Of a stretch of DNA of 64,000 nt, positions 2,800-37,586 are shown piece by piece (within the stretch, counting starts at the first letter, position 1; every line of letters starts with the position of its first letter). This DNA is from Nanobdellota archaeon (GTDB lineage Archaea > Nanobdellota > Nanobdellia > Parvarchaeales > Parvarchaeaceae): positions 83,377 to 147,376 of the forward strand of contig JAJYZA010000001.1 in NCBI GenBank assembly GCA_021800365.1, in the 5' to 3' direction. The notes under the pieces are model-generated. The model was not told the origin of the DNA. It was given only the letters and a program-made list of their open reading frames with translations, and searched no databases. A program made the position numbers and the translations under genes.

Positions 2800-2873
2800 G
2801 GGCCCGAAGGGATTTGAACCCCCAACCCGCAGATTAGAAGTCTGCTGCTATATCCAAGTTAAGCTACGGGCCC
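2800..2873 (-). tRNA. tRNA-Arg (TCT)
   Basis: Reverse complement GGGCCCGTAGCTTAACTTGGATATAGCAGCAGACTTCTAATCTGCGGGTTGGGGGTTCAAATCCCTTCGGGCCC folds as cloverleaf; loop CTTCTAA. Confidence 0.95.
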
Positions 2874-2897
2874 GACTAAGGATTAATATTACTTCGT

Positions 2898-3050
2898 TTA
2901 TTTATTAACTTTGGTTCTTATTTCATCCTTATTACTCCTAAAACATGAGGCACACACAGTATAAACTTTACCATTTGTCTTCACATAATTCCCCTTTAGC
3001 TTACCTAAGAAGGTTATTTCTATCTCTTTTCCACAGAGTGTACACTTCAT
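2898..3050 (-). CDS. Small zinc-ribbon protein (50 aa)
   Basis: Manual translation MKCTLCGKEIEITFLGKLKGNYVKTNGKVYTVCASCFRSNKDEIRTKVNK*; CxxC...CxxC; start overlaps SRP54 stop; absent from ORF track. Confidence 0.75.
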   Translation of the reverse strand: MKCTLCGKEIEITFLGKLKGNYVKTNGKVYTVCASCFRSNKDEIRTKVNK

Positions 3051-16894: not shown

Positions 16895-17971
16895 TTATAA
16901 CCTGACCTTATTTCTTGTTTGCTTTTGAAGTGCCGTAGTCCTTGATTTAAAAAAATCAAATGCGTAATGTAAACATAGAAATTCCGATGAAATCAATAAA
17001 ATCGTAAATGCCAATGAAACTCCAAATGAAGAATAAGCTGCGAATCCAAAGCCAAAAAGATATGGCCAGCTAGCATTTACAGTTGAGCTATAAAAATAGG
17101 AGAATGGAAGATTACCAAAGAGATCTATGAGAAGCCCAACTAAAAACAGCGAAGGGACTATAAATGTTATAAACCTAAGCGCTTCAATCCGCCTATTATC
17201 AAACACTAAATAAGCGAAAAACACGTTCGTAGCAATGTATACAACAAGCAAATCATAATGTAGCGTCCCATACGTCATTAAATTAGGATCAAAGATAAGC
17301 AAGTATAAACCCGCCAGGATAACTAGGACAAATGCAATTTTAGGGATGTATCTCCTAATCAGGCCATAAAAATGCGCGGTAAACGCAGCTAGAAAGGCGA
17401 CTATAATGATTATAATCCCGAGAATGCCATATTTCTCATTAGGGCCAGATGGGAAGGCATTACCTAAAAATGCGGGTGATTCGCCTGTCGGTGTAGGGGG
17501 AGGATAATAACCACTGCCATTACTTTTGCCGGTCAAAGCAGTTGTTATTGTCTTATTTGTAACGTTCAGCACTAGAGTAGCGACATTTGTCGATGGGTCG
17601 GCGCCGACCGCCCTAAAATCAATTAGGTATATGCCGAGCGCAGTGCTATTAGAGACCAATATAGAAAAATTCCCGGAAAACGTAGGGTTTTCTAAAAGAG
17701 ATGGCAGTCCGCCAAAAGATATCCCGGATACGCTACTGTTGCTTCTGATATCAGTTACTTCTAATTGTGTACCGGCTGCATTACCAGAAGACAATGTAAT
17801 GGCATACTTAATAACAGTACTGCTTGCAGGATTTATAGCCACGTTATAGGCAGACAGCGTCAATGCAGAGTCACCATAACTATTTTGTGCCCTTACTATC
17901 CCAACAAAAAACGTGAAGAAAAGGAACAGACATGCAACTAATAGTAATAGTCTTTTATATAAAATTAACAT
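16895..17971 (-). CDS. Secreted/membrane protein: signal peptide, extracytoplasmic domain, multi-TM C-terminus
   Basis: LLLLVACLFLFFTFFVGIVRA signal; Asn/Ser-rich ectodomain; several C-terminal TMs. Confidence 0.7.
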   Translation of the reverse strand: MLILYKRLLLLVACLFLFFTFFVGIVRAQNSYGDSALTLSAYNVAINPASSTVIKYAITLSSGNAAGTQLEVTDIRSNSSVSGISFGGLPSLLENPTFSGNFSILVSNSTALGIYLIDFRAVGADPSTNVATLVLNVTNKTITTALTGKSNGSGYYPPPTPTGESPAFLGNAFPSGPNEKYGILGIIIIIVAFLAAFTAHFYGLIRRYIPKIAFVLVILAGLYLLIFDPNLMTYGTLHYDLLVVYIATNVFFAYLVFDNRRIEALRFITFIVPSLFLVGLLIDLFGNLPFSYFYSSTVNASWPYLFGFGFAAYSSFGVSLAFTILLISSEFLCLHYAFDFFKSRTTALQKQTRNKVRL

Positions 17972-18056
17972 AAAGATATGATTAAGTTGACGTTATTTAT
18001 AAGTTTATTTATTTTACGCATAAAACCCAATAGCACCATAAATTTTTATCTAATCC

Positions 18057-21000
18057 TCAGGGAGGAGTTGTTGTGCAACTATACGGCAGATTAATCGTAC
18101 CGCCTGCGGTTAGATAAATATTGACGTAATTAGACGGTGTTGTACAATCTCCAGCTTGATCATTAGCTGCACTAAATAGGTAACTTCCTGGTCCATTGTC
18201 CTCTCCAGATATTATAGAAGATTGTGCCACCTCTCCACAGTTAAAACTTTGGCCATAAAATGAGTCGACCTGCACTTCTGATGTATATGGTGAATATACT
18301 ACACATTTTTGACCATCACCATACCATTCAAAACCCCATGTATCGCCACTAATGGCAAAGGGGTATTGATTGCCACCGTTAACACTATACGTCGCAGTAA
18401 TCGTAGTGTTGCAACCCCAATGTCCAAATGTAACGGTAGTACCGGCTATGACACTATTCCCATTAGAACCAGGAAGAGAATCGCAAGCATAATTCTCAAT
18501 ATGGGCAACCGCTGAGAAGACTCCTGCATGAGTTACTTCTGTTATAGAATTACTTCCGCGAGGTGGAGCGACTGTTGGGGCACTGTTATTTGCTGATGAA
18601 TAAGTAACGTACCACTTTGTATATTGGCCCGGACCTGTCCCGGCGTTATTTGTTATGCCACTATCAGAGAAGCTGAACTGAGTCGTGCACGACCAGTCAC
18701 CATTATTAAACGTATATGTGCTACCTGCTTGTACACTTGAAACATATGCAGAACATGAAAGCCCATCGATGGTAGCTGTTGCAGAATAGTCGCCAGGAGG
18801 ACTCGGTATCTGTATATTGCCGCCTGCCTTAGATGAAGACACGGTATTACCGTCATATGTCACCGTCCAATTGTAACCACCTGGAAGACCAGATTCTTCA
18901 AATTCTGTATAGCAAGAGCCAGCAGTATAACTTATAGTTTCGCTGCCTTCTCCAATGGTTATCTTTCCAGAATTTGGAGTCGGGTTATATGCGCATGCAC
19001 CATTAACATATGTGGTTGGTACTGAAAAGGTATAAACCGTTCCGAGAGGGGCATCAAAGTTCCCAGCCTGAGCATTTGTATGTAAGTGTATAGTCATTTG
19101 GGCAACATCTAGAGGAGCTGTTACATATACGTAATTATTATTTTGTGCGGCAGCGGCTATATCGCTGAGGTCTGCATTATTTATTAAAGTGTATACGACG
19201 GAATCTGAAGATGTGTTTATCGCATAAAGCAGCTGACCATTTGCGTATAACAGTTTACCATCCGAAGACGGCGCGAGGCTGTACACACTATACAAAGGCA
19301 GAGTTTTAATCTGGTAAGTACTTAAGTCTATTATTGAAAAATTATCGCTACCACCTACATAAAGTTTATTTCCGGTGGGAGATTCGGCGATACTTGTCGT
19401 ATATCCCGATTGTCCAAGTGGCAAAGTAATGTCCGTTATATATGAGCTTTTTCCTGAAAGGTAAGCGGTTACATTTACTATGCTTAGCTGGTTTCCAGTG
19501 CCAATAACGGACACGTATTGACTTGTCTGATCGCTAAGTTTAGGTGAAACTGCCAAGTCTTCAACGGAATAAGTATTAGAAATGGTACCGAGATTTATGG
19601 GGTACTGAGACTCTGGAGCTCTATTGCATAAAGTTTCCAGTCCCAAATAGGAAACGGAGGACGACACAATAGCATCGAAAAGCGCATATACACAAGCATC
19701 ACTATATGTATCTGCTGATGTTGCAACAAGCCGTGTTTGGTAACTATTTCCGTTCGAGAACTCTACCAATGGTGGAAAAGTTATATTCACGACCTCGGAT
19801 TCGGTGGTTAAGTTTATCTCTGTGATGATATTTGTCAGTGGAGCGGACACATATGCGTATTTGCCATCGGGAGTTATTGTTACTCCATTTGGATTTGATG
19901 GTAATGCATATGTCCGTACTACCTTACCAGTAGCTGTGTATGCCTGAATGAGTGTCGATGAAGAACTGTTTATCGTATATGTGAAGAGACCATCGGGAGA
20001 GACTGCTATTCCATGCCGTGGAAGTTCCCCGGATTCAGTTGCGCCCCATAGATAGCCTGTAGTGTTTAACGTCAGCTTATGTGTGGATATGCCTGTACTC
20101 ATACTGTATATACCTGGAACAGCCGTCAAATAAACATCCCAGTAAGCTCCGGACGGCAACCCGGATTCATAGAAAGTAAACTGGCAGTTGCCTGAAAATG
20201 CATAAGTTATAGACAGTGAGCTTCCTGGATATATCTTGCCTGAAGAATTAGACGGATTGTACAGACATGGTAGATAATCTGTGCTTGCTGAGGTGGCTAA
20301 AGCGTAACCTATTGAAAATTGTTGCGATGACGGAGACGCAGGAGTGCTGAAGGATATTGCATTGTAGTTAATGAGGGTAGAATTTGTTCCCTCATAATTA
20401 GTCCACCATGTGCCGAGTGGGAAATTCTGGCCTGTATCAATGGGCAACTCGGTAAATGTGGTTATACAGGACCAGCTATTGATAGCCACATCATTATAAT
20501 TATATGAACCTGTGCTTACGGTTTTCTTAGCAGTACACGTAAGACCATCTACTGAAGCGCTCGCTACAAAGGTGCCATTTTGTGTTACTAATGTTATAGG
20601 TGAGTTTGTACTATTGGAACCGGTTATGCCATCGAAAGTTACGCTCCACTTAAATCCCGGCGGCAGAGAGGATTCTGTAAATGTCGTAGCACAGTTCACT
20701 ACTGAATAATTAACTTGTAAAGTGTTGCCTGTAGGCAAATATCCCGCAGCCGGTATTACTGTGTACTTGCAGCCGTTTATTGTAATAGAACTTAGTGGGA
20801 GCGACAAAGCTACAGCGGACGCTTGTGCGCCAGTAGTCAGATTCGCTATAGATTGGTAAGACGTTGCATTTAGGATTTGTAGAGAACCGCCGTTATACCT
20901 TGTGACATACAATAAATTCCCATCAGCAGAAACTGCGATACCGAAAGGATTTCCTTGTCCGATTATATTTATCAATTTATAGGAAGATGCATTTACTATT

Positions 21001-24000
21001 GCTATTCCGTCACCATCAAGTGTAGTATACACGAGTTTCCCATTTGGCGAGGCCGCTACGCCATAGCTTGGAGGGGCGAAAAGGCTTCCCGAAGCAAGGT
21101 TTACGGTCTTTAGATATGTATCGGAAGTTGCATTTATTATCGATAGTTGCGATTCCGGCGTAAGGCTTGAATAAGTAACATAGACATATCTACCGTCAGG
21201 AGAAACGGCTATCGAATATGGATTAGCGTCGGGTAAATCTATAGTTTTAATGACCGCATCGGAAGAGATGTTTATAACTTCTAGTCCGTATCCGCTCGTA
21301 TTTGCAACATACAGGCTATTACCATTAGGAGATAACGCAATCCCTGCGGGTATACTGTTGGCAGGCAAGGAAATCGTACTCACCAACGTTATTGGATTTG
21401 TTGTACCGATTGAGAATACAAAAATGCCCTTCGGAGTCGCTGCGTATAAGAAATTACCATTATTAGAGATTGCTACTCCCCCATATGGATAAGCCCCGGT
21501 TTCTGGCGTGAGTGTAGTGACCATGTTCGTCGAGGTATTTATAACTGATATCCCTGTGCGCCCACTTACAAAGACCTGCTTGTCATTCGGTGCTACTGCT
21601 ATCCACGCAGGCGAATGTGCTACGTTAATGCTGGTCTCAACGTTATTAGTGCCATTCACAATAGACGTCGTATTTGAGAGGAAATTCGTAACATATGCAT
21701 TCGACGAAGGATAACCGATAGTGTAAGGCCATGTTCCCCCTCCTTCCGTGGAAAAGGCGATCTTATTCGAACCTTTGGAATTCTCCGAGGTACCATTATA
21801 TGTAGCTGTCCATGCAGTATTTAGCGGTAGACCCGACTCAATAAAAGTAGTTTCACAAATGGCCGGATAAGAGATGTATTCTGTAGATCCAGCAATTAAC
21901 CCGGTACCTCCATTTGGCGAAGGCCCGTAACTGCATCCACCTATGTTTATAGAAGAAACTTCGAAAGCGTAGTTTCCTGGAGGGGTTACTATAGTTATAG
22001 CACCTGAAGTAGACCAACCGGTATACACAACCGTTGGCTTATTCGGTCCAGTTTTATATACCATATCTACGCTCCAATTCGTGCCGGTCGGCAATCCGGT
22101 TTCTGCGAAAGTCGTGGTACAGTAAGTTTCAGTATATACGATTTCCTGCAGGCCCCCCGAGAATAAGTTGCCACTCGATGGCGCCGGTGTATATGTACAA
22201 CCGGCATATGTTACTGGATATGCCGTGAATGCATGGGAAGTTCCAGCTGGTAATATAAAGGAGATGGAAGAAGAAACGGACGATTTCGTAATGCCGTCAT
22301 ACGTAACTGTCCATGATACACCAGATGGTAATCCGGATTCCTGGAAGGTCGCCGCTGGATTGAAAGATAGGTATTTTCCAAAAGGTGCGTTGATTGTATA
22401 AACCGGCACGGGCACCATATTATAAGTCTTAGGAGAAACAAGCAGCGTATAACTGACATTCCATAGAGTCGGAAGATTGTAAGCAAGGTAATAACTTGAT
22501 GCCGTAGTAAATGTAGTGTTCCCCGGTGTCTGGAACATACAGTTCACTATATATCCATACAATTTGTTATTTATCGGATTGCACTCCTCGTCAGAACTTA
22601 TGTTGAGCTCAAACTGGCCGCTTCCCGCATATTTAGAAGTAAATACCCTCTGATTGCCATTTGAACATGTCGAGTCCAGGTTAAGAGCCGGCCCCGCAGT
22701 GTCATACAAGTTAACTGTAGGTGAGGACGTATTCCCTGTCTCGCTTACGCTATAGAATTGTATTGCGTGCAAACCCTGATTTAATGCGCCAAGAGATAGG
22801 AATATTCCATCTGAATAGCCTGTTGGGAGCTGCTGCCCTGAGCACAGTCCGCCTTCTCCGAGTGCAAATGCGTCGAAACTATTGTTTTCAAACACACCGC
22901 CAGGACAGTTCGCCGACGTGCCTCCCGTAAAGAAGCTCATCGCATAATCCAATATACTGCCATTCACGAAACCTGGGATGCCGTATACCTTGAAAAACGG
23001 GTTTTGCAGTAACAACATATTCAACATGTCATAAGGATACACCGAAGACTTGAACAAAGCTTCTGAAGGCAGATTAGATAATAAAAGGTTGGTCGGATAA
23101 AGTACGGTATTTAGCGTGTTAAACTCGTATTGGGACATCGATAACCCACTCATATACTGGTCTTTTACTATTGTCTGTTCGCCGCTTGGAGGGATGGAGA
23201 TGTTAGTTATCAACGTATTGTTTAATACACCAAGTCCTATTCCGATTCCGCTGTCATTAGCGTATTGTAGTGCATATGACGCATTTGAGGAGGTTGCTAC
23301 GCCGCTATGCTGTGCGATGCAGCCGTTGGCGACGGTCGGCGCTGTGTAACCTGGCTGTGAAAATGCATTACATCCAGTCGGAAGCGAACCCACTCCAGGA
23401 CCTGACGCCGATTTATATTGGGTATAAGAAGAGTATCCTGAATAACCAACTGTAGTACAAGCCGGCGTCGCAGACACGCTTCCGCTGAAACCAACTGGTT
23501 GAGGGTTTGGATTAGAACATGATTCTATTGTCCCTGAATATCCCGCAGGACAACTATAAGTCGAATAAAAGGTAGAGCCACTCGTTACACTAGAAAAAGT
23601 CGGCTGGGTCTGATTAAAAATATCCCTACCGGCTTCACAGCCGCCTACTTCGGGGAGATTCTTATGTGCGCTATCTAGGTAAGGTGTCCAAGTATCTCCA
23701 GATACAACATTTGAATGTATCGGATCTGAAACGTTTCCACAGAGAAAATTCGCTGTCGGCGCTGTCGGCTCCGCCTGGCTTCCAGACAACGTATTCCAAT
23801 TAAACGTAAGTGTCATTGTCTGTGATCGTATCGGTCCATTATAAGTGTCGCTGCATGAAGCGACTAAATCTGCTGAAAGTCCTGAGCCTAAATAATTCGA
23901 ACGTATGCTGGAGCTACAGTATCCAGCCGAGCTTCCACTGCCGCATGATAGCGTAAAGGTATGTCCTGTAGTGTTAGTCACACTACCACTACACATGAAT

Positions 24001-27000
24001 GAGGAGCTGCTTATCAAGATCGGATAATTTTGCGCCTCGTAAACTGGCATACTTGAAGTAGCTGTGCCGCTTGTGCTTGTTACATCTTTCTGCCCAGTCC
24101 AAGTGATATTTATTGCGCCATTTGTCTGCTCGCATGAGTAGGCGGAATTTATAATGCAACCTCCTTCGAGGTTTCCGTTGTTGTCACTTACAAGCGATTC
24201 TATTTTATCATAGCTGCCACCGGAGGGTGGAATCTGCTTATAGACTGCTGTACAGGTTGTATAATTGACTATTGAAGAATTGCCAGGGCAACTGCCTATC
24301 ATGGATCCCGCACTACTTGGATTGAAAATGGCGGCCACGTCCTGCGGCGTCCTATTTATTAGATTACTCTCTCCGGCATTATTTGGATTATAATTTTGCC
24401 AGGTCCCGTTTACCTGCAATTGTGGCCATGACAATACATAGTCATTGCCTTGCTTGATTGACGATGACGTTATTGCTGAAGTCAGCGCGCAATCACCGTA
24501 TATTGTGGAATTCAGTCCACCGGAACTAATGTTATAAACGCCAGGTCGGTACAACAAACCTATAGTTTCTCCACTCTGAGTAGTGTAGAGGTTATCGACA
24601 CCATTCAAAGATGATTCTGAAGTATACATCGGCTGGGGGCCGAGCATGCAATAAAATCCGGAGTTTATGTATGAAGATGGGACTGAAACTGTATTCGCTC
24701 CGCCTAGCGTGCCTGAGGAGTAGCCGTTGTTAGTGATACAACTATTTGATAAGCCATAAGGATCGTTTAGCGGTGTGGTGGTGGGGAGTGCCTGGCCTAC
24801 CTTTACCGTAGAATATCCACTGTAGCCTATAAATTTCGGTGGCGGAACGTAGGTAATCTGACCACTGTTTGTTTGCGCATATGAAAAATTAGATATGAGA
24901 TTGTTCTGTATGTTAAACGAAAGCGGTTCGCCTTGTGAAAATATGTAATCCGTTATTACAGGTGCGCCATTATAGAAGCAGAAAGCGCTGTCGACTGCCT
25001 GGGATGGGTTTGTTATCTGGTACAGTTTATTCGAATTGTAGCTGACTCCGCCAAATCCCGACTCTGGCCATATAACTTGCTGCGAAGCCGAGTACGAAAC
25101 ATCGAAACATTTGACTATTGGACCATCGACCGTCTGCGTTATCGTGCTTTGTTGTTCCGTTGACAGATTATTCACTAGCAACGTACCTACACCGGCTCCA
25201 GCGATAGAAAATGAATCGAGGCATGGTCCAGTAGAAGGCTTGCAATTTGCGAGTAAATTTGTAGAGTAGTTTTTAGCGCTTATGAAAACCGAATATTGCG
25301 TCGAAGATGTGTTAAGCCAAGAGTCTGAATAAGTTGCTGGAGAAGGCAGTTCTCCAGTGAATAGCGTATAATTTACCGAATTTCCGCCGTTTATATTGTT
25401 GAGTATAAATTCATAAGTACATTGGCCCGCGGAAGGCATTACTTGATATGGTACCTCCGCATAAGGATATGGCGACTGGCCTAAAAGTCTCAAGTCATAA
25501 CAAGATGAGCCGGGAGAAGCAATGGAGAAACTTACTGGTATCGATGATGGTAAAGCCGAGGTCGTATTTATCGATAGCGCATAAGCAGCAGAAGGATTAT
25601 CCGGAATAGCAGATGGTAATAAGACAAAGAAGCCGCCTGCGGGAGTGCTTATCGATACATTCCGCAATAAAGCCCCATTTAAGATTGCCTGCCCGTTGCT
25701 TTGTTCGATAAAAGACAAGCTATAATTACCTAAATTTTCTAACTTGCATCCCGAAAGCCCGAAACCCGGGTTACTGTAATTAAATTCGCCATTATCGACT
25801 ATAGCGTTTACAATATTACATCCGTTTGTAGAAGGTATGCTAGTAAGATTAACTTTCTGCGAATTCAATGGCACTCCATTGTCTGTTATGTATAATGTCC
25901 CCTTACTAAAGTTCTGCACGGCTACTCCTAAATTTATATCACCGCTACCTAGGTAGGCTGTCCCGATGCCTTGAGAAGTGAAAACGGCCCTGATCCCTGG
26001 GAACGTATTGCTTACTCTGCAGAATATGCTGCCATTCGGTGCACTGTATTCACCCGCCCCTTCCGAAGCAACGGCATTGTTTTTTATGCCGAATATATTA
26101 TTTACTACATCACAATTGAACGGGGTGTCATTTAAATAGTAAAGGTATATATTTGAGTTATCAAGTATCGTCGTTTTTGGCGCTGCACCGAAAACCAGAG
26201 TAAATCCCTTACTTATCTGCAAAGTTACATTTAAGTCCATAGTGTATGCAAGAGCCGTATTGAGTGGACAAATCTTGGTGTGGCAAGGCGGTCGAATGCG
26301 GATTTCCGTAGAATTTGATATATTGGAGGAGACCATAACGGCACCGTTGCTGCTTAGATCCCCGAGATTTAGCGTGGAGGTATTATACATCTGCGCATAG
26401 AAAGGCCCGTCGTGCGAATCAACAACTATGTATGAATTGTTAACATAGTCACTAGGCAGTGTTGCGGTTAGATTACTTAGACACGGCGCGTTTGAACTGT
26501 TAACTGTAACTATCTGCGAACCATTTGTTTGGAAAGGATAAGCACAGTTGCCATAAGCCGCTCCCTTGTAGTATAAGTAAAGATAAACTGTATCGTTAAT
26601 CAGTCTCGTGAAGTTATTAAGTGTATCTACACCTACAATCCTCATAATCGAACTATTGCCTATCATGTTATTAGCTATTAAAGTAAAACCGTAGGCCGAA
26701 GGCGATATAGCGACGGGAGTTATCGTCGGCGTAACTGAAAGCAGATTGTACACGCTAGATAAATTAGCAAATCCGGCAGGTTCGGTTCCTTTTCCAAAAT
26801 AAACGAAAGCCTCTTTTTGATACTGGCCAGAGGTCGCATTTATTACTGGGGTTTCTAGGCGCATAGAAACGGCAGCAGTAGGATATATGGCACCATTATC
26901 GTAATTAAGCGTCGTCTGGTCTGCGTAAGGAGAGAAAAGTAGCCCTCTCCATCTATTTATTATTACATTTGTTACTTGGTTATTCTGCGTGAATGAATTC

Positions 27001-30000: not shown

Positions 30001-30107
30001 TGATATGATACAAGCGAATTTCCACCGATTATATAATTTAGCCTTATGCCTGCGACAATAAATAAAATCACTATAGATAATGCTAAAATCGCATTGAGTT
30101 TATTCAT
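18057..30107 (-). CDS. Giant secreted surface protein (4016 aa) with ESGLP-type repeats and beta-propeller-like blocks
   Basis: Uninterrupted 12-kb ORF; N-terminal hydrophobic signal/anchor; Ser/Asn/Thr-rich; repeated ESGLPxGxxWxVTYxG and AVSPDGxxVYV motifs. Confidence 0.92.
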   Translation of the reverse strand: MNKLNAILALSIVILFIVAGIRLNYIIGGNSLVSYHAVGTSHAFAKNNIGTGNSSADVLAPSVSSAITSSEAFNPNGFQSNYWFNEKFLPGSVTSSQGGYTCNAPTSYSVTASKQICVGSICFPYWVTVNLNSATYSYNSFYGYFGFPQNNAGQYDGLSGALTCTGEGNSGIGSLHPEYPNLASAWIPYPTSVNDPNYCLPTTSGPISIPGIGVANNPYPNSNSPYYPNFINWSKSDIYQYGSSGYYYAVNSSFSVQGTGGAGPAVPSHSTMIVPAISCGSTFPNNYLSGYPYLGVVTSLAPIPAILSVSGFVPSVGLAAQGGIGFSVYYDFGQAFWPGGNNNPLLLFWLDNIFSTFNYNSPTLNYAQFPSGNPGDTAYINVSGFFNTPLSENYFDAGSNTIVNLYESNLSLSSISNLASQSSWESFLSQPGLTSTHINTYTLPNLQSAYYPTLTTGLTSNVQIQAFFRTAAVFPFCNWTGQTANSPGNVLPFCTFENRSSIDPVSYERYWSSAFQNVLDDQPYAPGYNTQDPLNNFTQGELNSFCFYGENFDTSTGVYTSPSYTRIIPPIAAENYLTAIGECNAFFNNTNCFRTSANFNSLQYNSYMNFQDGIFSQPVCTANGIAPKNVTDAWITSLYLANNAGNFCGDFSGQKNLSAPYAGSTEFLQNLSSSCPVFNSNDSSVPLVVTVKNVGNTNMTRPYLVILFNDTNVSQMFHSSNGNLQTNNYGLYENFLTQMQQETTGIIEIRYNSQLQTDMFVYKNGYPLNPVPIQALFAQSQSYEAGPFNNSLLGFWMYMPNSLQYPNVIRASNTFLVHTSSGSSSMPLIVPNGTATFTVEIPMAVFKTLLAGKVNVSVYFGNALNVSWESPGSSPSAYLSGGMTVDPLVSSGLVSSISPLTPQWPPQGYELKNQADILSHNNEFIDPSSSYTSPPWQYLVSYTANFSKKPFSGISIYSDSLNVFVGAASANQSVLISNISAKVSMQNGTGNYDLSSPAQLNGSTISCFASQENIQDFSVFWSTQAVSAPNLNYAVQNSFTQNNQVTNVIINRWRGLLFSPYADQTTLNYDNGAIYPTAAVSMRLETPVINATSGQYQKEAFVYFGKGTEPAGFANLSSVYNLLSVTPTITPVAISPSAYGFTLIANNMIGNSSIMRIVGVDTLNNFTRLINDTVYLYLYYKGAAYGNCAYPFQTNGSQIVTVNSSNAPCLSNLTATLPSDYVNNSYIVVDSHDGPFYAQMYNTSTLNLGDLSSNGAVMVSSNISNSTEIRIRPPCHTKICPLNTALAYTMDLNVTLQISKGFTLVFGAAPKTTILDNSNIYLYYLNDTPFNCDVVNNIFGIKNNAVASEGAGEYSAPNGSIFCRVSNTFPGIRAVFTSQGIGTAYLGSGDINLGVAVQNFSKGTLYITDNGVPLNSQKVNLTSIPSTNGCNIVNAIVDNGEFNYSNPGFGLSGCKLENLGNYSLSFIEQSNGQAILNGALLRNVSISTPAGGFFVLLPSAIPDNPSAAYALSINTTSALPSSIPVSFSIASPGSSCYDLRLLGQSPYPYAEVPYQVMPSAGQCTYEFILNNINGGNSVNYTLFTGELPSPATYSDSWLNTSSTQYSVFISAKNYSTNLLANCKPSTGPCLDSFSIAGAGVGTLLVNNLSTEQQSTITQTVDGPIVKCFDVSYSASQQVIWPESGFGGVSYNSNKLYQITNPSQAVDSAFCFYNGAPVITDYIFSQGEPLSFNIQNNLISNFSYAQTNSGQITYVPPPKFIGYSGYSTVKVGQALPTTTPLNDPYGLSNSCITNNGYSSGTLGGANTVSVPSSYINSGFYCMLGPQPMYTSESSLNGVDNLYTTQSGETIGLLYRPGVYNISSGGLNSTIYGDCALTSAITSSSIKQGNDYVLSWPQLQVNGTWQNYNPNNAGESNLINRTPQDVAAIFNPSSAGSMIGSCPGNSSIVNYTTCTAVYKQIPPSGGSYDKIESLVSDNNGNLEGGCIINSAYSCEQTNGAINITWTGQKDVTSTSGTATSSMPVYEAQNYPILISSSSFMCSGSVTNTTGHTFTLSCGSGSSAGYCSSSIRSNYLGSGLSADLVASCSDTYNGPIRSQTMTLTFNWNTLSGSQAEPTAPTANFLCGNVSDPIHSNVVSGDTWTPYLDSAHKNLPEVGGCEAGRDIFNQTQPTFSSVTSGSTFYSTYSCPAGYSGTIESCSNPNPQPVGFSGSVSATPACTTVGYSGYSSYTQYKSASGPGVGSLPTGCNAFSQPGYTAPTVANGCIAQHSGVATSSNASYALQYANDSGIGIGLGVLNNTLITNISIPPSGEQTIVKDQYMSGLSMSQYEFNTLNTVLYPTNLLLSNLPSEALFKSSVYPYDMLNMLLLQNPFFKVYGIPGFVNGSILDYAMSFFTGGTSANCPGGVFENNSFDAFALGEGGLCSGQQLPTGYSDGIFLSLGALNQGLHAIQFYSVSETGNTSSPTVNLYDTAGPALNLDSTCSNGNQRVFTSKYAGSGQFELNISSDEECNPINNKLYGYIVNCMFQTPGNTTFTTASSYYLAYNLPTLWNVSYTLLVSPKTYNMVPVPVYTINAPFGKYLSFNPAATFQESGLPSGVSWTVTYDGITKSSVSSSISFILPAGTSHAFTAYPVTYAGCTYTPAPSSGNLFSGGLQEIVYTETYCTTTFAETGLPTGTNWSVDMVYKTGPNKPTVVYTGWSTSGAITIVTPPGNYAFEVSSINIGGCSYGPSPNGGTGLIAGSTEYISYPAICETTFIESGLPLNTAWTATYNGTSENSKGSNKIAFSTEGGGTWPYTIGYPSSNAYVTNFLSNTTSIVNGTNNVETSINVAHSPAWIAVAPNDKQVFVSGRTGISVINTSTNMVTTLTPETGAYPYGGVAISNNGNFLYAATPKGIFVFSIGTTNPITLVSTISLPANSIPAGIALSPNGNSLYVANTSGYGLEVINISSDAVIKTIDLPDANPYSIAVSPDGRYVYVTYSSLTPESQLSIINATSDTYLKTVNLASGSLFAPPSYGVAASPNGKLVYTTLDGDGIAIVNASSYKLINIIGQGNPFGIAVSADGNLLYVTRYNGGSLQILNATSYQSIANLTTGAQASAVALSLPLSSITINGCKYTVIPAAGYLPTGNTLQVNYSVVNCATTFTESSLPPGFKWSVTFDGITGSNSTNSPITLVTQNGTFVASASVDGLTCTAKKTVSTGSYNYNDVAINSWSCITTFTELPIDTGQNFPLGTWWTNYEGTNSTLINYNAISFSTPASPSSQQFSIGYALATSASTDYLPCLYNPSNSSGKIYPGSSLSITYAFSGNCQFTFYESGLPSGAYWDVYLTAVPGIYSMSTGISTHKLTLNTTGYLWGATESGELPRHGIAVSPDGLFTYTINSSSSTLIQAYTATGKVVRTYALPSNPNGVTITPDGKYAYVSAPLTNIITEINLTTESEVVNITFPPLVEFSNGNSYQTRLVATSADTYSDACVYALFDAIVSSSVSYLGLETLCNRAPESQYPINLGTISNTYSVEDLAVSPKLSDQTSQYVSVIGTGNQLSIVNVTAYLSGKSSYITDITLPLGQSGYTTSIAESPTGNKLYVGGSDNFSIIDLSTYQIKTLPLYSVYSLAPSSDGKLLYANGQLLYAINTSSDSVVYTLINNADLSDIAAAAQNNNYVYVTAPLDVAQMTIHLHTNAQAGNFDAPLGTVYTFSVPTTYVNGACAYNPTPNSGKITIGEGSETISYTAGSCYTEFEESGLPGGYNWTVTYDGNTVSSSKAGGNIQIPSPPGDYSATATIDGLSCSAYVSSVQAGSTYTFNNGDWSCTTQFSFSDSGITNNAGTGPGQYTKWYVTYSSANNSAPTVAPPRGSNSITEVTHAGVFSAVAHIENYACDSLPGSNGNSVIAGTTVTFGHWGCNTTITATYSVNGGNQYPFAISGDTWGFEWYGDGQKCVVYSPYTSEVQVDSFYGQSFNCGEVAQSSIISGEDNGPGSYLFSAANDQAGDCTTPSNYVNIYLTAGGTINLPYSCTTTPP
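19100..20020 (-). repeat. YVTN-like beta-propeller blades, block 2
   Basis: IAVSPDGLFTYTIN, VTITPDGKYAYVSA, IAESPTGNKLYVGG, LAPSSDGKLLYANG. Confidence 0.75.
20800..21620 (-). repeat. YVTN-like beta-propeller blades, block 1
   Basis: Repeated AxSPxGxxxYVxxxxxxxLxIIN: IAVAPNDKQVFVSG, VAISNNGNFLYAAT, IALSPNGNSLYVAN, IAVSPDGRYVYVTY, VAASPNGKLVYTTL, IAVSADGNLLYVTR. Confidence 0.8.
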
Positions 30108-30178
30108 GTCTTCCCCCGAACGCTATCTGTGCAAGCAGCGATAGCGGCTTACTTGTAAAGCTATGCGTATTTTCCATA

Positions 30179-33100
30179 TTAAGTGCCAACTGCAGACCAG
30201 CTAGTATAGCTGTCAATTTTACTTATTATATTAAGATTCGGGTATAATTGGTTATAAGCTGTACCATAAAGATCGCCAATATTAAATGCAGTGGCCTGCG
30301 AAGAGTACGTCGCATTAAACACCTGTATATTCAATGAAGGTTTTATAGTTATACAGGCAAAGCTACTGTAAAATTTAGTTTGTGAAGCGTTATAAATAAA
30401 TGGTGCGGCTACGCCGTCTTTGATAAGTTCAAGCGAACCGTTTACCAATGTAACGTTTGGAGATGGCTTTTCGGAATAATTATAAGACAGTTCATTTACC
30501 GTTGATCCATTATAAAAGAATATTGGAAAAACCGTCGCTCCAATATCATCATCCGGACTACTGAAATTATACGCTCCGCTTCCATAAAGTATATAAACTG
30601 CTGATGGCGTTGCGGACTTTCCTAGGTCTATCCACATATTTCCTCCCGACTGTAAAGATGGACTCCACCACGGAAGTTGCTCTATTTTACCAGAAGGATA
30701 AACGCCAAACACCTTCACATAATCCGCTGAAAGATAACTGTAATTAAACTCTAAATTTAATGGCAGCTGTAACTGATAATCGTAGCTGAAACTATTTTGA
30801 TTTAACGCGATAAGGTTATAGAATGTATTACTTTCGGTAGAAAGACCGAATGCTGAGATTAAAGTTGGATTTAAATTTTCTACCGGTTGGTCACTGTATG
30901 ATGCCTGTATCGGAGCATAACCTGCTGCGTATTGATGTGCAAAAAGATAGCTTACTATGTCTTTTGAAGGACTGGTACCTGTCGACAGCCCTATTACCCC
31001 TAATTGACGTCCAAATATCGACAAGGTATTAGGACTATCCGATGAGAAGGTAACATTGTTTCCTGACCCAGTAGTAAGCGTTAGCTTATAACCGGAAGAC
31101 TGCGACCAGTAATTGTTTAGCTCAAAATTGACAATTGCTGGGCCAATAGCTGATGACTCTGTAGAAGATGAGAGCACCGTTAGTCCATTTTGATTTGAAT
31201 AATTGTACAGGAGATTTATATTTTGATTTCCATTGAGTTGTGCAACGACAAAATTGCTTCCTAGATTATCTGAAGTGCTTAGCAGCAGATTAAACTCCGG
31301 CGTCGACCCGTCAAGTACTACTCCCCCATCTATAGATATGTTTACGGGTAAGGCAGCCATCCGATTTGAATTGTTAAAAAGCGCAAATGACCAATTTGTA
31401 TAATTTTCTTTAGGAGATATCGCGCCACCTCCAACCATTGCAAGTAGTTTATTGTTAAATTGAGGATTAGAATAAGTAAAATTAGCGCCGTTTATTTCCG
31501 CATAGTCTGGGCAGGCATTGCTGTCAGTAAACCATCTTTTATATGAATACGGCATACTTGACTGTTCGAATGTGTAGCTGCAATAGTATCCACCGGACTC
31601 GGATTGACACTTAGCGCCACTTACACTGCTTGAAGACTCTATATAAGCCGTACACGTATTATTTAAAAATTCTCTTGCGATTATTGGGGCACAGTTCAAT
31701 AACGTTGCACCGGAAGCATTGATCAATGTCTGCGTGAATCCCGGGTATCCATATGCGTAAGGATTATTTTGTATCCCGCACTGTTCAGTTGGGATCAATT
31801 TCAATCCGTTTTGATAGGCGAAATTTAGTGAAATTGGCACGGCAAGGGTCTCTGAAAAATTGCTGGCCCCGCTGGCTATCTGAGAACTCACAGAAAATAC
31901 ATAGTCCGCTGACGCATTATAATCGGCTGGGACATAAGCACTGTATTTACAATTACCTGCTTCTGAAGCGTTAATGGATAGATTTAATACATTTATGTTG
32001 AATGGTATCCCAGAAAGGAAGCTAACTTCAAGAGGCACCTGATACTCAAGTAAGTTTTTGATATTCGAAAGCGCGGTCTGTGAAAGAAGATTTTTACAGA
32101 AAGCCATGTCTGCTGGAGTTTGACTGCAATTATAAATCGTTGTGCCGTAATAATTCTGTTGCTGGACTTTCTGGAGTTGATTTATAAGATAATAGGTGCC
32201 ATACTGCGGCGACCCCATAGCCAATATAAGTGCGCTGTACCAGTCGTATTTCGGCACGCCGGCTACAGAAACTGTCTTTAGATTGACGCCATGTATAGTG
32301 TTCTCAAGATAATTAAATAGGGCGTATTGAGCGAAGCCGGTAATGTTTGCGTTGCCAACCGGAAAACTTTCATTCACGAATGCGACGCCTAACTGCATCA
32401 TCTGACTTATGTAATCCGTGTCGGTTATATAACCTGCCGCACTTATACAGTTTTGTAGATTAAACTGTATTTCATTGTAGGATACGCACACCTGCGGATT
32501 ATAGAGCGGATACAATGATAATGATACACGAAGAGGTTGATAATTTGGGAACAGAAGATTCTCACTGCTTTGTGTCTGAAATTCATTTATCAAATACTTG
32601 TAATAAATGAAATCTGGCTGTAGCGGCACGACGGCATAATTTTCAGGGAATATATAGAAGACTCCATTCGGATAATTCGAGACAGTGAAATTATACCAAG
32701 TCCCCCCGAATTGAAATTTTGAGTTATTCACGAGCGGCTCCTGTGCTTCTGAAGCGGACAAACCGGCTGCGATGTCTTCTGATATCGCGGCATTTAGACT
32801 TCCCGCATTTGGGTTCAGAAGTGGGGTAAGCGTATATGTATGAATGCCACTTGAGGTGCTGTTGTCGTATATAACTGCCATAATTCCTGATGGGAATGTT
32901 ATTACAGAGAACTGTGCGCTTGGGGCGATTTTTATATAATTAAAGAATGACGACCGTAAAACTGAATCACTCAATACCCCAAACAGCATATCTGATTCGG
33001 GCAGAATGGAAAACTGATTTTGCCCTAAACTAAAGGTATCCCCGACGCTACCATTAAACACTAATGTGTTTCTTGTCTTATCATATACGGAGATGATTGC

Positions 33101-33682
33101 AGTACTATAGTTTGGCCTATCGTAATAAATAGTATAATTATCGGATAGATATGGCGCAGAGAAATTTGCGGAGAAGACTCCAGCTAGCTTTGTCTTGGTA
33201 AAATTGATATCCAAAAAGGTTTTTATCCCCATTCCAGTGGCATTTACAGTGGAAAAACTGCTTTGATTAAGTAGTGCCTTAAGCCCGTAAAGTATCTCCT
33301 GATTGTTTGGTAGACAGGTTTCTCCTTGAAGGTTATGCCAATAGTATATTTTGTCTGTAGGTATGAATGGCAGATTAGTCGTGGCATTTATGTAACCACA
33401 AGAAAGCTGCGAATCTCCATTTGGAAAACCAGAGAAATAAGATGAGGGCTGCAACAAAAAGGCATCAAAAAGCTGTGCCTTATCAAACAAGTAGTTCGCC
33501 TGCTGTATAAGATAATCTTTCTGTGCAAGGCTCTGGTAAATACTATTCTGTGCAGTTATTTGTATCTGCGAACTCAAACCTACTGAGTTCATGTAGTTAA
33601 ATCCCTGTGAGACAACAAAGATAGTTGCAACTACCATTCCAATTATTGCGATTATATTTGCTTGTCCTCTGCTGTTAAACAT
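30179..33682 (-). CDS. Large extracytoplasmic protein (1167 aa) with pilin-like N-terminus
   Basis: MFNSRGQANIIAIIGMVVATIFVVSQ; Asn/Ser/Tyr-rich body. Confidence 0.8.
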   Translation of the reverse strand: MFNSRGQANIIAIIGMVVATIFVVSQGFNYMNSVGLSSQIQITAQNSIYQSLAQKDYLIQQANYLFDKAQLFDAFLLQPSSYFSGFPNGDSQLSCGYINATTNLPFIPTDKIYYWHNLQGETCLPNNQEILYGLKALLNQSSFSTVNATGMGIKTFLDINFTKTKLAGVFSANFSAPYLSDNYTIYYDRPNYSTAIISVYDKTRNTLVFNGSVGDTFSLGQNQFSILPESDMLFGVLSDSVLRSSFFNYIKIAPSAQFSVITFPSGIMAVIYDNSTSSGIHTYTLTPLLNPNAGSLNAAISEDIAAGLSASEAQEPLVNNSKFQFGGTWYNFTVSNYPNGVFYIFPENYAVVPLQPDFIYYKYLINEFQTQSSENLLFPNYQPLRVSLSLYPLYNPQVCVSYNEIQFNLQNCISAAGYITDTDYISQMMQLGVAFVNESFPVGNANITGFAQYALFNYLENTIHGVNLKTVSVAGVPKYDWYSALILAMGSPQYGTYYLINQLQKVQQQNYYGTTIYNCSQTPADMAFCKNLLSQTALSNIKNLLEYQVPLEVSFLSGIPFNINVLNLSINASEAGNCKYSAYVPADYNASADYVFSVSSQIASGASNFSETLAVPISLNFAYQNGLKLIPTEQCGIQNNPYAYGYPGFTQTLINASGATLLNCAPIIAREFLNNTCTAYIESSSSVSGAKCQSESGGYYCSYTFEQSSMPYSYKRWFTDSNACPDYAEINGANFTYSNPQFNNKLLAMVGGGAISPKENYTNWSFALFNNSNRMAALPVNISIDGGVVLDGSTPEFNLLLSTSDNLGSNFVVAQLNGNQNINLLYNYSNQNGLTVLSSSTESSAIGPAIVNFELNNYWSQSSGYKLTLTTGSGNNVTFSSDSPNTLSIFGRQLGVIGLSTGTSPSKDIVSYLFAHQYAAGYAPIQASYSDQPVENLNPTLISAFGLSTESNTFYNLIALNQNSFSYDYQLQLPLNLEFNYSYLSADYVKVFGVYPSGKIEQLPWWSPSLQSGGNMWIDLGKSATPSAVYILYGSGAYNFSSPDDDIGATVFPIFFYNGSTVNELSYNYSEKPSPNVTLVNGSLELIKDGVAAPFIYNASQTKFYSSFACITIKPSLNIQVFNATYSSQATAFNIGDLYGTAYNQLYPNLNIISKIDSYTSWSAVGT

Positions 33683-33683
33683 A

Positions 33684-34277
33684 TTAACTCATCACTCCAT
33701 AAATTGTGTACGGTTTTGACGGATCTTCTGGGTTGTATACCTGTAATTGACATAATGTAGAAGCGCTGATGGATGAGGGAATCTGATTAAGGTACACACT
33801 CATCCCTGCATTATTCAAGGTGATTATGTTCGCGTTCTTTATGCCATTAAAAGTGCTAAAAGAGAACGAAGAGAAATAATTTATAAAATCGGAATATAGA
33901 GAAGAAAAGTTCGTCAATGAGCTAGATAAAACAGAATATCCGAGATTACAGGAAGTGCCACAGTTAGCATACAACTGGGATTCCTGATTCGATTGCGCTG
34001 TCTGATATTGGTCTGGGTAATAAAGCGATATTAAATTGAGCGCCGCTGCTGTATGAACATAATAGCTCCCATACAACGAATTCAAAGCAAAATTACAAGC
34101 TATTGCCGATGGTTCTTGATTTACTGCAGTAATTAGATTCGCTGTAGAAGTCTGTAAGAAGGAAGCGGCTATTATCGCAAGCACTATCGCCGCTATCGGG
34201 GCCAAAACCATATCAACAATTGTGATTTGCCCTCTTCTTGAAAGTCTTAGATTTATCATATTACGATGAAAGTCCAT
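33684..34277 (-). CDS. Pilin-like protein (197 aa)
   Basis: LSRRGQITIVDMVLAPIAAIVLAIIAASFLQTS: basic residues-GQ-hydrophobic helix. Confidence 0.75.
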   Translation of the reverse strand: MDFHRNMINLRLSRRGQITIVDMVLAPIAAIVLAIIAASFLQTSTANLITAVNQEPSAIACNFALNSLYGSYYVHTAAALNLISLYYPDQYQTAQSNQESQLYANCGTSCNLGYSVLSSSLTNFSSLYSDFINYFSSFSFSTFNGIKNANIITLNNAGMSVYLNQIPSSISASTLCQLQVYNPEDPSKPYTIYGVMS

Positions 34278-35061
34278 AATTTATTGTTACATATAGCACG
34301 CCACTATCTTGATATAGAGGTTGGCCAACCGAATTAGTAAATTGAATAGTTACTGGGAACTGCTCCGTATAAGAATTTTCACTAAGAAGAGTAGCGATTG
34401 AGGTATATTGTGGTAATATATCGTTATGAGAGTTCGAGCCTACTGCTGCCACTATATTGAGACCAACGCTACCGCCAGTAAGCGTCCCAAGAGCAACGCT
34501 GACGCCGATACTGGCGACCAACGCGGCATATTCTGCATATTGAGCGTATTGCGCTACTTGCGCTTCTACGGCGTAGAATTTATCTCCGTAATTGAGTTGA
34601 TTATAATTTGAAAGAGTCACAGAACCGGCTGCTCCCAAATCAGACGGATTCTGAGTATCTTTGAGAGTGACACTAATCCCGGTAAATGCAGCAAGCTGAG
34701 ACGGCAGTCCAGGAACATCTGTGGTTCCACCAAAGTAAACATACTGTACACAGGATATAAAGCCATTCGCAGAAAATTTGCTTGCATCAATCACCCCCGG
34801 TTCGGTGTCGGAGACAGAATAGAGTGGTCCACCCTCTATTGCGCTATTATTGTTGTAGTAATTCATATTTAGGCGATAGGCAAAGCAGTTCGGAGAAGTT
34901 ATCAGTCTTGTACCTAGTGCAGTTGCAACTGATTTTGCATTTGCAAAGACAGCTACGCTATCTATATTTGATACGTTATATGACAGCACTATGAGCAATA
35001 GCGCGAATGAAACAATCAATATCCCGCCATTGATAAAAGCCATCAGTTGAGTTAGCGCCAT
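34261..35061 (-). CDS. Membrane-anchored extracytoplasmic protein (266 aa)
   Basis: MALTQLMAFINGGILIVSFALLLIVLSYN; overlaps neighbouring gene. Confidence 0.7.
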   Translation of the reverse strand: MALTQLMAFINGGILIVSFALLLIVLSYNVSNIDSVAVFANAKSVATALGTRLITSPNCFAYRLNMNYYNNNSAIEGGPLYSVSDTEPGVIDASKFSANGFISCVQYVYFGGTTDVPGLPSQLAAFTGISVTLKDTQNPSDLGAAGSVTLSNYNQLNYGDKFYAVEAQVAQYAQYAEYAALVASIGVSVALGTLTGGSVGLNIVAAVGSNSHNDILPQYTSIATLLSENSYTEQFPVTIQFTNSVGQPLYQDSGVLYVTINYGLSS

Positions 35062-35067
35062 TTTATT

Positions 35068-37530
35068 TTATCCACCTCCGAGAAAAAGGTTCAGCCATTG
35101 CCACGGGAATTGCTCTTGTGAAAAGTATGTTCCCCCGGTTACATTTGGACTATTTGGGTATACTCCAAATAATACATTATCTCCTACTGGAACAAGCGAT
35201 ATGTTAACCCCTCCTCGCATACTAGTCTTTAAAACCTTAAATGTAAGATTTACATATTCTGTAGGATAAAATGCTTGATTTGGTGTTTGTCCGGAAAACA
35301 GTGGCGGGATTGTTGCTTCGCCCTGTAGACCGTTAGCTATTTGCTGAAACCAGCTCGCTTTTATATACGGCTGTGCCAATCTAAGTGCGGGTATTTCTAA
35401 CCCGACCATTACCTTGTCTGTGATAGTATTGCTTGCTATGTAATTCGAACCGGTTGAAAGAGGTGCTGAAAACATTACAGTACTGTTGCTGTTTAAAAAA
35501 GTCGCGCCTGCGCCGGTCCTCCCTAAAAACGCTAGGTTATACGTACCGTTAGTCGTGTTATATAGGTTTATACATTCTCCAGGTATACCAACTGCGACAT
35601 TATTTAAAATTTGTACGGGATTACCATAACCATTGAGGACTAAATTAAATACACAGATAGTACTATCTGCGGAGTTTGTCATGCCGATAGCATATTGTGG
35701 CGACACATAGATACTAACGTTATCACCATTTTGCGCAGTCAAAATCTGATTCACAAAAGTCGAAAGGCTCTTTGGGTATATTTTACTGTCCGGAGAGCAA
35801 ATCGTATTATAAAGACCTTGACTGATAGAAAAAGACAGGCTACCATTCCCGGCTGGAGCTACTATGGTGTTTAAGTTAAATCCAGGCTGCACGGATGACT
35901 GTACAATGCCGCACATATCTGCCATATCCGCTATTATCGGCGCAGAGGCAGTAGTAGGCCTGCCATTAGATTGTCCATTTATGTAAGCTTCTCCTCCATA
36001 GCCGACGAAATAAGTACCTATCTGATCTATCTCATTTAATTTACCATATACATCTAGTGGAGAAGTGACCGCACCGTAAATTTCTGCTGCATCTGACAGT
36101 GCACTATTTGCATTGAGTCCTTGTGGCATAGTACCCAAACAACTTGCAGTCTCTCCATAGACGAGAAAGCCTTTTTGTGCAAGAAAAGCTGTAGCTGCAA
36201 GTATCGGATCTCCGCTACCTACAAATTTCGCAGGCCCCACGAATTGATAACCTGAACTGCTTAACTGTTGCGGGGCGGATACGCCCTGGGAAGGCGTTGA
36301 ATATAGATTATAATTTGAATTGGCATTTTGATTCGAAAACGCCGCAAGCTGATTAGATTCTGACTGTAAGACATTCGCTTCGCCAACGGCATCTTGGATC
36401 GCATTTGACGAAGCTACACTCGCGGCCGGTAGATTATTTATGTCAGACATAGAAGAGATAAAACCCGCATACTGGACTAATTGCAAATTCGCAGCGTTTA
36501 GGTTCGGGGATACCACTTGTGCTGTTTCATAAGAAGCGACTAAAGTGTTATAGACATTAACGGCGTTGTTTGATAAGCCACCTATCGCGTTGCTTGCGGC
36601 AGAGTAACCGGAAGTTAAATAATTCGAAATAGTCGGTGCATCATATCCGATCCAAAACTGAAGCGCCGGCATTCCAAGATTCGTCAGTAATGAAGTTATC
36701 TGAGGATGGGCTTTTGTAAACGCGCGTGCTGATTTTATGCCAGACACAAGTCTCCCTAAAAACGATTTTTGAACCTGAGCTTCGCTGGAAGGGGCAAGTA
36801 ATGCTAAGGGTTTTTCAGTAGATGCTTCATCCTCAACGATACTATTTACAGCTTCCTGAGAGATACCCTCATTAGTAGCTAGTATCTGAAGATCCTCCGC
36901 AGCTGCGGTGCGCGCCGATGCTGTTCCTACCCCGCCATCTAAAGCCACTACAACGACTTTGCCCTGTTCAAAACCAGCAGCAAGGCCAGGATCTGCTTTT
37001 ATTTCATCTATTATGCCTTGTATATCAGACAAAGTTGTCTCCTGCTCGGCCGCCGTTCCTATCGCACTTGCTCCTTCGCTTAGCGCACTTTCACTCCTTA
37101 AAGCTAGGGAGGTTGATTCACTCGAAGCTTCTCCACCACTCCCAAAGACCCCCTTCCCACCCTTTGGTCCAACCGTGAGGAAAAAGCACAATGCTACGCT
37201 AAACGTGCTTTGACCGGTATCGAGTGTGGGGCCAGTAGTATAAGACACATTATATATCTTCGCTCCACCTGCACAGTTATAGGCGTCTATTGCACTATCC
37301 CAAGTACACAAAGAATTATTTCCCGACAATGTAATCTGCATTGATGAAGGGGCCAAGTAAAGCGCATTTTTAGCAGCGGCGATATTATTAGCAAAAAGCT
37401 GCAGAGAGTTCGCACCATTCTGAAATAGTATGCCCTGTAATTCAGCAAAATATATACCGACGAGAAGAAACGCCGCAGATATTATAAGGACAGCCACGCC
37501 TATTACTACCTGCGTTCTCTTATTTAACAT
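35068..37530 (-). CDS. Large membrane-anchored extracytoplasmic protein (820 aa)
   Basis: MLNKRTQVVIGVAVLIISAAFLLVGIYFAELQ; Ser/Asn-rich body. Confidence 0.78.
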   Translation of the reverse strand: MLNKRTQVVIGVAVLIISAAFLLVGIYFAELQGILFQNGANSLQLFANNIAAAKNALYLAPSSMQITLSGNNSLCTWDSAIDAYNCAGGAKIYNVSYTTGPTLDTGQSTFSVALCFFLTVGPKGGKGVFGSGGEASSESTSLALRSESALSEGASAIGTAAEQETTLSDIQGIIDEIKADPGLAAGFEQGKVVVVALDGGVGTASARTAAAEDLQILATNEGISQEAVNSIVEDEASTEKPLALLAPSSEAQVQKSFLGRLVSGIKSARAFTKAHPQITSLLTNLGMPALQFWIGYDAPTISNYLTSGYSAASNAIGGLSNNAVNVYNTLVASYETAQVVSPNLNAANLQLVQYAGFISSMSDINNLPAASVASSNAIQDAVGEANVLQSESNQLAAFSNQNANSNYNLYSTPSQGVSAPQQLSSSGYQFVGPAKFVGSGDPILAATAFLAQKGFLVYGETASCLGTMPQGLNANSALSDAAEIYGAVTSPLDVYGKLNEIDQIGTYFVGYGGEAYINGQSNGRPTTASAPIIADMADMCGIVQSSVQPGFNLNTIVAPAGNGSLSFSISQGLYNTICSPDSKIYPKSLSTFVNQILTAQNGDNVSIYVSPQYAIGMTNSADSTICVFNLVLNGYGNPVQILNNVAVGIPGECINLYNTTNGTYNLAFLGRTGAGATFLNSNSTVMFSAPLSTGSNYIASNTITDKVMVGLEIPALRLAQPYIKASWFQQIANGLQGEATIPPLFSGQTPNQAFYPTEYVNLTFKVLKTSMRGGVNISLVPVGDNVLFGVYPNSPNVTGGTYFSQEQFPWQWLNLFLGGG

Positions 37531-37586
37531 ATCCCAAGAAGTAGTACGTTTTATGTTTATTTATGCATTTTTGCGCGGGTTTTTAA

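What the first reader, a model, noticed from the sequence alone, without database searches (positions are those of the whole stretch)
16895..37530. 20-kb operon of surface/pilin-like proteins ending in a 4016-aa giant: candidate novel archaeal cell-surface apparatus
Seen: six co-oriented genes (820, 266, 197, 1167, 4016, 358 aa) with overlaps or short gaps. All have an N-terminal hydrophobic segment; at least two carry pilin-like 'RRGQ/SRGQ + hydrophobic helix' N-termini. Bodies are Ser/Asn/Thr-rich. No assembly ATPase or TadC/PilC-like gene is in the window. Knowledge: archaeal pilins have a short basic segment, a Q/G-type cleavage site and a hydrophobic helix. Inference: four pilin-like minor components present or export the giant adhesin or S-layer-like protein, plausibly for host contact in an episymbiont.
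Basis: partly seen in the sequence, partly recalled or inferred. Interest (0 to 1): 0.85.

Follow-up and report, generated by a model that had tools for sequence, protein, structure and literature searches.

The report
Giant-tipped pilus gene module in nanoarchaea
A tiny parasitic-type archaeon carries four pilin-like genes followed by a gene for a giant secreted protein; the same set recurs in distant relatives next to a type IV pilus motor, so it is probably the tip of a pilus that grips host cells, a part that earlier surveys of these archaea could not find.

Summary
The six ORFs are real, on the minus strand. Five (820-266-197-1167-giant) form a tight cluster that is syntenic in every relative examined (11 loci). 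The sixth (358 aa) is not part of it. The genome belongs to Parvarchaeota (ARMAN-4/5 type), not Micrarchaeota. Genes 197 and 1167 carry class III signal peptides in 12/12 genomes, 820 mostly near-canonical ones; 266 has lost its leader in this family.

Decisive context: in other families of the class, the same set sits 6-27 kb downstream, same strand, of a divergent pilus ATPase/TadC pair (15 of 16 genomes with both on one contig). The window's genome encodes orthologues of that ATPase and TadC, plus a prepilin peptidase, on other contigs. The cluster is therefore a pilin module of a DPANN type IV pilus.

The giant has a ~2580-aa cysteine-rich conserved core and a hypervariable C-terminus with beta-propellers. 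Best reading (inference): a minor-pilin priming/tip complex carrying a giant adhesin, working like bacterial PilY1 plus four minor pilins but not detectably homologous. DPANN pilus loci are known; this tip module was not described in the papers read. Fold predictions were uninformative; tip position and adhesion are untested.

The parts
35068..37530 (-). First pilin-like gene, 820 aa; N-terminus MLNKRT|QVVIGVAVLIISAAFLLVG, large cysteine-bearing ectodomain
   Evidence: HMM hits the equivalent gene in G056 (2.3e-21), G043 (1e-14), G036 (1.9e-4)
34261..35061 (-). Second pilin-like gene, 266 aa; most conserved member; motif SPNCFAY...PGVID..K; no leader cleavage site in this family
   Evidence: 48 of 141 class genomes; AF2 model low confidence, helix 3-55 then beta strands
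33684..34277 (-). Third pilin, 197 aa; class III leader SRRG|QITIVDMVLAPIAAIVLAI
   Evidence: 12/12 with motif
30179..33682 (-). Fourth, large pilin, 1167 aa; class III leader NSRG|QANIIAIIGMVVATIFVV; DUF2341-like region near the C-terminus
   Evidence: DUF2341 (PF10102) matches 5 of 12 family members, best 3.3e-4, not the window member itself
30473..30805 (-). Approximate DUF2341-like region of the 1167-aa protein (residues about 960-1070, placed by eye from the family alignment)
18057..30107 (-). Giant secreted protein, 4016 aa, N-terminal hydrophobic segment, no C-terminal membrane anchor
   Evidence: homologues 2552-3860 aa
22368..30107 (-). Conserved core of the giant (residues 1 to about 2580), with more than 40 invariant cysteines across 9 giants
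18057..22367 (-). Hypervariable C-terminal part of the giant (Ig-like ESGLP.G..W repeats and beta-propellers)
   Evidence: sister giants G002 versus G009 30-44% identical here against 56-90% in the core
20802..21698 (-). YVTN/YncE-type beta-propeller repeats in the giant (residues about 2804-3102)
   Evidence: PDB 1l0q archaeal surface layer protein, 1.9e-24
19242..20039 (-). Second beta-propeller-like stretch of the giant (residues about 3357-3622)
37557..37564 (-). TATA-like box ATAAATAA at -34 to -27 from the 820 start codon (probable operon promoter, by eye)

Best explanation
The five genes 820-266-197-1167-giant are the minor-pilin and tip module of a DPANN-type type IV pilus. Proposed working: 197, 1167 and 820 are cleaved by the genome's prepilin peptidase. 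The four pilin helices pack into a priming complex on the TadC platform, and the giant, exported through Sec, docks on it. The divergent ATPase of contig C26 then adds major pilins beneath, so the complex leaves the cell as the pilus tip. The giant's cysteine-rich core is the stalk, and its fast-changing propeller/Ig-like C-terminus binds the host or another surface. SHOWN: conserved five-gene order, class III leaders on two of the four pilin-like proteins, co-location with ATPase/TadC in other families, presence of motor and peptidase in this genome, core/hypervariable split of the giant. INFERRED: co-transcription, complex formation, tip position, binding and host role.
For: Synteny of five genes in 11 family loci. 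In relatives that seemed to lack the set, the contig ends at or near it or both flanking housekeeping genes are missing. All five HMMs hit consecutive genes in two other families, giant included (1.3e-14, 4.9e-10). The 266 family is found in 48/141 class genomes, and in 15 of 16 genomes outside the family with both genes on one contig it lies 6-27 kb from the ATP2-type ATPase on the same strand (chance 1e-9 or less), with TadC after the ATPase. Own genome: ATP2 ATPase plus 698-aa TadC on C26, a second ATPase with two TadC-type genes on C21, prepilin peptidase on C4. Class III leaders on 197 and 1167, 12/12 each. DUF2341 in the large pilin family, a domain placed in PilY-like tip adhesins of archaeal pili by Makarova 2016 (PMC4858521). 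Propellers in the giants here and in other families: YVTN, PQQ, FG-GAP, besides PKD. C-terminal hypervariability. Bacterial parallel: PilY1 with exactly four minor pilins primes and tips the pilus (PMC7541494); a propeller pilin of the episymbiont TM7x contributes to host binding (PMC12206443).
Against: 266 has no leader in Parvarchaeota and 820 is non-canonical in 5 of 11. In the most distant families only 266 is recovered with significant scores; the other genes are matched by position. Some families have four short pilins and no giant (G040, G074, G134, G067), so the giant is not essential to the system. In Parvarchaeota the module is not next to the motor. The fold models were poor and matched nothing. 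No expression, filament or binding data.
Confidence: 0.6

Rival explanations
1. Type II-secretion-like pseudopilus: the four pilins form a short pseudopilus and the giant is a secreted substrate released to the medium rather than a tip.
For: Four pilins in a row with a large fourth member recall the GspH-I-J-K tip (own knowledge); the giant has a signal-peptide-like N-terminus and no C-terminal anchor.
Against: The giant, where present, is encoded directly after the pilins and its core is about as conserved as they are; stand-alone class III pilins that could build a long shaft occur in the genome.
Confidence: 0.15
2. Cell-surface coat: the giant is an S-layer-like or cell-wall protein and the pilin-like proteins are its membrane anchors; no filament is involved.
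For: Best solved relative of the propeller is an archaeal surface layer protein (1l0q); the N-terminal hydrophobic segment of the giant could be an uncleaved anchor.
Against: Class III prepilin leaders on 197 and 1167; linkage to pilus ATPase/TadC in other families; the propeller lies only in the variable C-terminus; no C-terminal anchor.
Confidence: 0.12
3. The pilins build the base or shaft of the filament (as proposed for minor archaellins) and the giant is a separate adhesin that merely shares the operon.
For: Makarova 2016 places archaeal minor pilins near the pilus base by analogy with the archaellum (PMC4858521); the four-pilin set exists without a giant in several families.
Against: Where a giant exists it follows the pilins directly; the giant core is about as conserved as the pilins.
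Confidence: 0.13

Closest known systems
Type IV pilus loci of cluster 2 DPANN (Hamm et al. 2024, PMC11291902)
   Same: ATPase (CpaF) + TadC loci across Woesearchaeota, Pacearchaeota, Nanoarchaeota and others; small coiled-coil-like genes near the ATPase also appear in the loci fetched here
   Different: The text names CpaF, TadC, FlaF, PilA and coiled-coil proteins; it does not describe a four-pilin plus giant tip module, nor Parvarchaeota. The figure could not be seen.
Archaeal T4P census (Makarova, Koonin, Albers 2016, PMC4858521)
   Same: Class III pilins, minor pilins, large DUF2341 adhesins compared with PilY
   Different: That census states that cognate pilins of a nanoarchaeal ATPase clade could not be identified; whether ATP2 belongs to that clade was not tested here
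PilY1 with FimU-PilV-PilW-PilX (bacterial T4aP tip and priming complex, PMC7541494)
   Same: Four minor pilins plus one large secreted protein in one cluster, beta-propeller in the large protein, variable recognition part
   Different: No PilY1 or bacterial minor-pilin family match; class III archaeal leaders; giant several times longer (PilY1 size from own knowledge)
Kil (Tad) pilus tips of Myxococcus (PMC12075869)
   Same: Minor-pilin sets that expose variable domains at the pilus end for prey recognition
   Different: Bacterial Tad pilins, no separate giant of this kind
SPEARE giants of nanohaloarchaea (PMC10266531)
   Same: Giant extracellular DPANN proteins with Ig-like and propeller domains
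   Different: Those carry a VirB4/TraG-like ATPase domain and sit beside a VirB4 gene; no such domain found here

Membership tests
Archaeal type IV pilus (T4P) system | Class III prepilin leader followed by a hydrophobic helix | tested here: met
   197 and 1167: 12/12; 820: 6/11 strict, rest near-canonical; 266: 0/12 in Parvarchaeota, present in a remote homologue
Archaeal type IV pilus (T4P) system | Assembly ATPase and TadC platform linked to the pilins | tested here: met
   Beside the module in other families; in the same genome but on another contig here
Archaeal type IV pilus (T4P) system | Prepilin peptidase in the genome | tested here: met
   PF01478 on C4
Archaeal type IV pilus (T4P) system | Pilin fold (long N-terminal helix, beta-rich head) | tested here: inconclusive
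   266 model pLDDT 61.7 has helix 3-55 then beta strands, but no significant PDB match
Archaeal type IV pilus (T4P) system | Filament on the cell | not testable with these tools
   needs microscopy
PilY1/minor-pilin tip complex (bacterial T4aP) | Minor pilins and a large secreted protein in one cluster | tested here: met
PilY1/minor-pilin tip complex (bacterial T4aP) | Sequence membership of the PilY1 family and bacterial minor-pilin families | tested here: not met
   no such Pfam match at E up to 1 or NCBIfam match; a works-like claim only
PilY1/minor-pilin tip complex (bacterial T4aP) | Tip location and priming role | not testable with these tools
   inference
S-layer protein with C-terminal anchor | C-terminal membrane anchor | tested here: not met
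   hydropathy scan finds no C-terminal segment in the giant
SPEARE-type DPANN giant | VirB4/TraG-like ATPase domain | tested here: not met
   no ATPase domain found in the giant

The most novel reading that the evidence does not exclude
Class Nanobdellia shares a previously undescribed pilus tip system: an ancestral set of four minor pilins which in several lineages carries a disulfide-rich giant whose hypervariable C-terminus sets host specificity, making it the recognition device by which these ultra-small archaea select and grip their hosts.
Probability: 0.4. Interest if true: 0.82.

Novelty: new variant of a known kind. Interest (0 to 1): 0.62.

Why it matters
How DPANN archaea recognise hosts is an open question. 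The 2016 census could not name the pilins that go with a nanoarchaeal pilus ATPase clade (PMC4858521). This module gives alignable candidates, a signature (SPNCFAY...PGVID..K in the second gene, and the gene order) to find them in other genomes, and a specific part, the giant's C-terminus, whose change between sister species can be compared with host range.

Tried and rejected
Pfam and NCBIfam on the six proteins: only propellers in the giant. PDB sequence search with 266 and 1167 profiles: nothing. AlphaFold of 266 (pLDDT 61.7) and of giant residues 470-1110 (pLDDT 43): too weak; Foldseek for 266 had no significant match; the giant fragment was not searched because its model is too poor. Idea that some sister species lack the module: rejected for the six checked, contigs end at or near it or both flanking genes are missing. 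Idea that the 358-aa gene is the sixth member: rejected. Idea that TadC is split in two genes on C26: the break is a run of N in the assembly. Tandem DNA repeats: none found.

Full report
OBSERVATION. Gaps are 6, -17, 1, 71 and 85 bases. The window is an interior part of a 215-kb contig of an 898-kb, 98% complete genome. Records matching the 266 gene are titled Candidatus Parvarchaeota, Nanoarchaeota or Ca. Rehaiarchaeum, so the lineage is Parvarchaeales (ARMAN-4/5 type), not Micrarchaeota.

THE UNIT IS FIVE GENES. In all 11 family loci examined the order 820-266-197-1167-giant is kept, and where the flanks are assembled it lies between a tRNA nucleotidyltransferase/Lhr-like helicase (in most) and a Holliday-junction-endonuclease-like/LonB block. 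Some loci end within the giant or the 820 gene at a contig end. The 1167 family was found in most same-genus and same-family relatives searched (26 of 55 genomes in all, nearly all of them in the window's family). In six relatives that seemed to lack the module or held only a fragment, the contig ends at or close to this spot (G006, G010, G011, G014) or both flanking housekeeping genes are missing from the bin (G015, G024). The 358-aa gene is different: its homologues in two dozen relatives lie at other places, and a TATA-like box sits at -31 to -23 before it.

PILIN CHARACTER. A strict class III test ([KR][GA] then a hydrophobic helix free of charge) is met by 197 and 1167 in 12/12 genomes and by 820 in 6/11 (others read KRT|Q, KKT|Q or NA|Q); 266 never meets it in this family, but a homologue in another family starts MKAQ. 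Background in the window: 4 of 48 ORFs, two of them these genes and one a stand-alone pilin at 55213-55695.

LINK TO A TYPE IV PILUS. Profiles of the five genes hit five consecutive genes in G056 and G043, two other families of the class, including their giants at 1.3e-14 and 4.9e-10. A wider 266 profile matches 48 of 141 class genomes in 16 family labels, some weakly. A divergent pilus ATPase (ATP2, C26 of the window's genome) occurs in 135 of 141. Outside the window's family, 16 genomes have both on one contig; in 15 they lie 6-27 kb apart on the same strand, in one (G132) 134 kb apart. A chance pattern has probability 1e-9 or less even if the contigs are taken as only 150 kb long. In the loci read, a 675-705-aa TadC follows the ATPase, then archaellin-like small pilins and large membrane proteins, then the module. 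The window's genome encodes ATP2 with a 698-aa TadC on C26 (the apparent split is a run of N), another ATPase with two TadC-type genes on C21, and one prepilin peptidase on C4. In Parvarchaeota the module has thus been parted from its motor; in G022 both are on one contig about 26 kb apart.

THE GIANT. Nine giants share a core of about 2580 residues with more than 40 invariant cysteines, the best blocks at residues 541-860 and 2340-2570. After it comes a part that changes in length and sequence: two sister species keep 56-90% identity in the core and 30-44% after it. Here that part holds Ig-like repeats (ESGLP.G..W, by eye) and YVTN propellers related to a solved archaeal surface layer protein. 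Giants at the same place in other families carry PQQ, FG-GAP and PKD modules. The 1167 family has a DUF2341 region (5 of 12 members, best 3.3e-4).

VARIATION. In G040, G067, G074 and G134 the quartet is made of short pilins with no giant seen after it (G134 is read only to near its contig end). In G044 and G054 a large pilin-like gene lies upstream and the giant follows three genes. The quartet seems ancestral and the giant an elaboration; equivalence of the third and fourth genes in these distant loci rests on position, not on significant scores.

MECHANISM. Best reading: a priming and tip complex of four minor pilins that carries the giant out on the pilus, with the variable end as the binding part. 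This works like bacterial PilY1 with four minor pilins (PMC7541494), Kil tips (PMC12075869) and the propeller pilin of TM7x (PMC12206443), but no PilY1 or bacterial minor-pilin match was found, so it is not filed as a member. ARMAN cells are seen linked to Thermoplasmatales by pili-like fibres, some of them extending from the other cell (PMC4110969), so a host role is plausible but unproven.

NOVELTY. DPANN pilus loci with CpaF, TadC and coiled-coil proteins are known (Hamm 2024) and DPANN pilins were noted as too divergent to recognise by similarity (Makarova 2019). The conserved quartet and its giant were not described in the texts read; figures and supplements could not be seen. New variant of a known kind.

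LIMITS. MAG data; ORF starts by rule; fold models weak; no expression data; phylum range outside the class not searched.

Noticed in passing
window 55213-55695 (-): Stand-alone class III pilin of 160 aa (MKRKAQSALEYMMTYGWAILIIVIVAAVLYSMGIF...), a candidate major pilin in the same window.
   Followed up: partly
L131:14819-15919 (+), contig C26 of the same genome: 366-aa class III pilin (SALEYMMTYGWAIL) with a Laminin_G_3 / concanavalin-like domain, about 2.3 kb after the ATP2-TadC genes.
   Followed up: partly
L132:2999-7456 (-), contig C4: Prepilin peptidase next to three pilin-like genes (300, 308, 327 aa) with basic leader and hydrophobic helix.
   Followed up: no
L135:10123-13028, L142:464-3145, L144:10020-13093, L138:1912-4421: In other families two or three small multi-membrane-span proteins and one or two small proteins on the opposite strand (possibly the coiled-coil proteins of Hamm 2024) precede the ATP2 gene.
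   Followed up: no
L030:2745-6605 (G022): Its 820-type pilin is 1286 aa with an insert of about 400 aa that looks like a BNR/propeller domain, as if display domains move between members of the module.
   Followed up: no
L051:11380-16092 and L052:11380-16092: 1167-type pilin enlarged to 1570 aa.
   Followed up: no
window 16895-17971 (-): 358-aa protein (Ig-like ectodomain by eye plus five further membrane spans by hydropathy); a genus-wide family found at varying loci, with a second copy on C30.
   Followed up: partly
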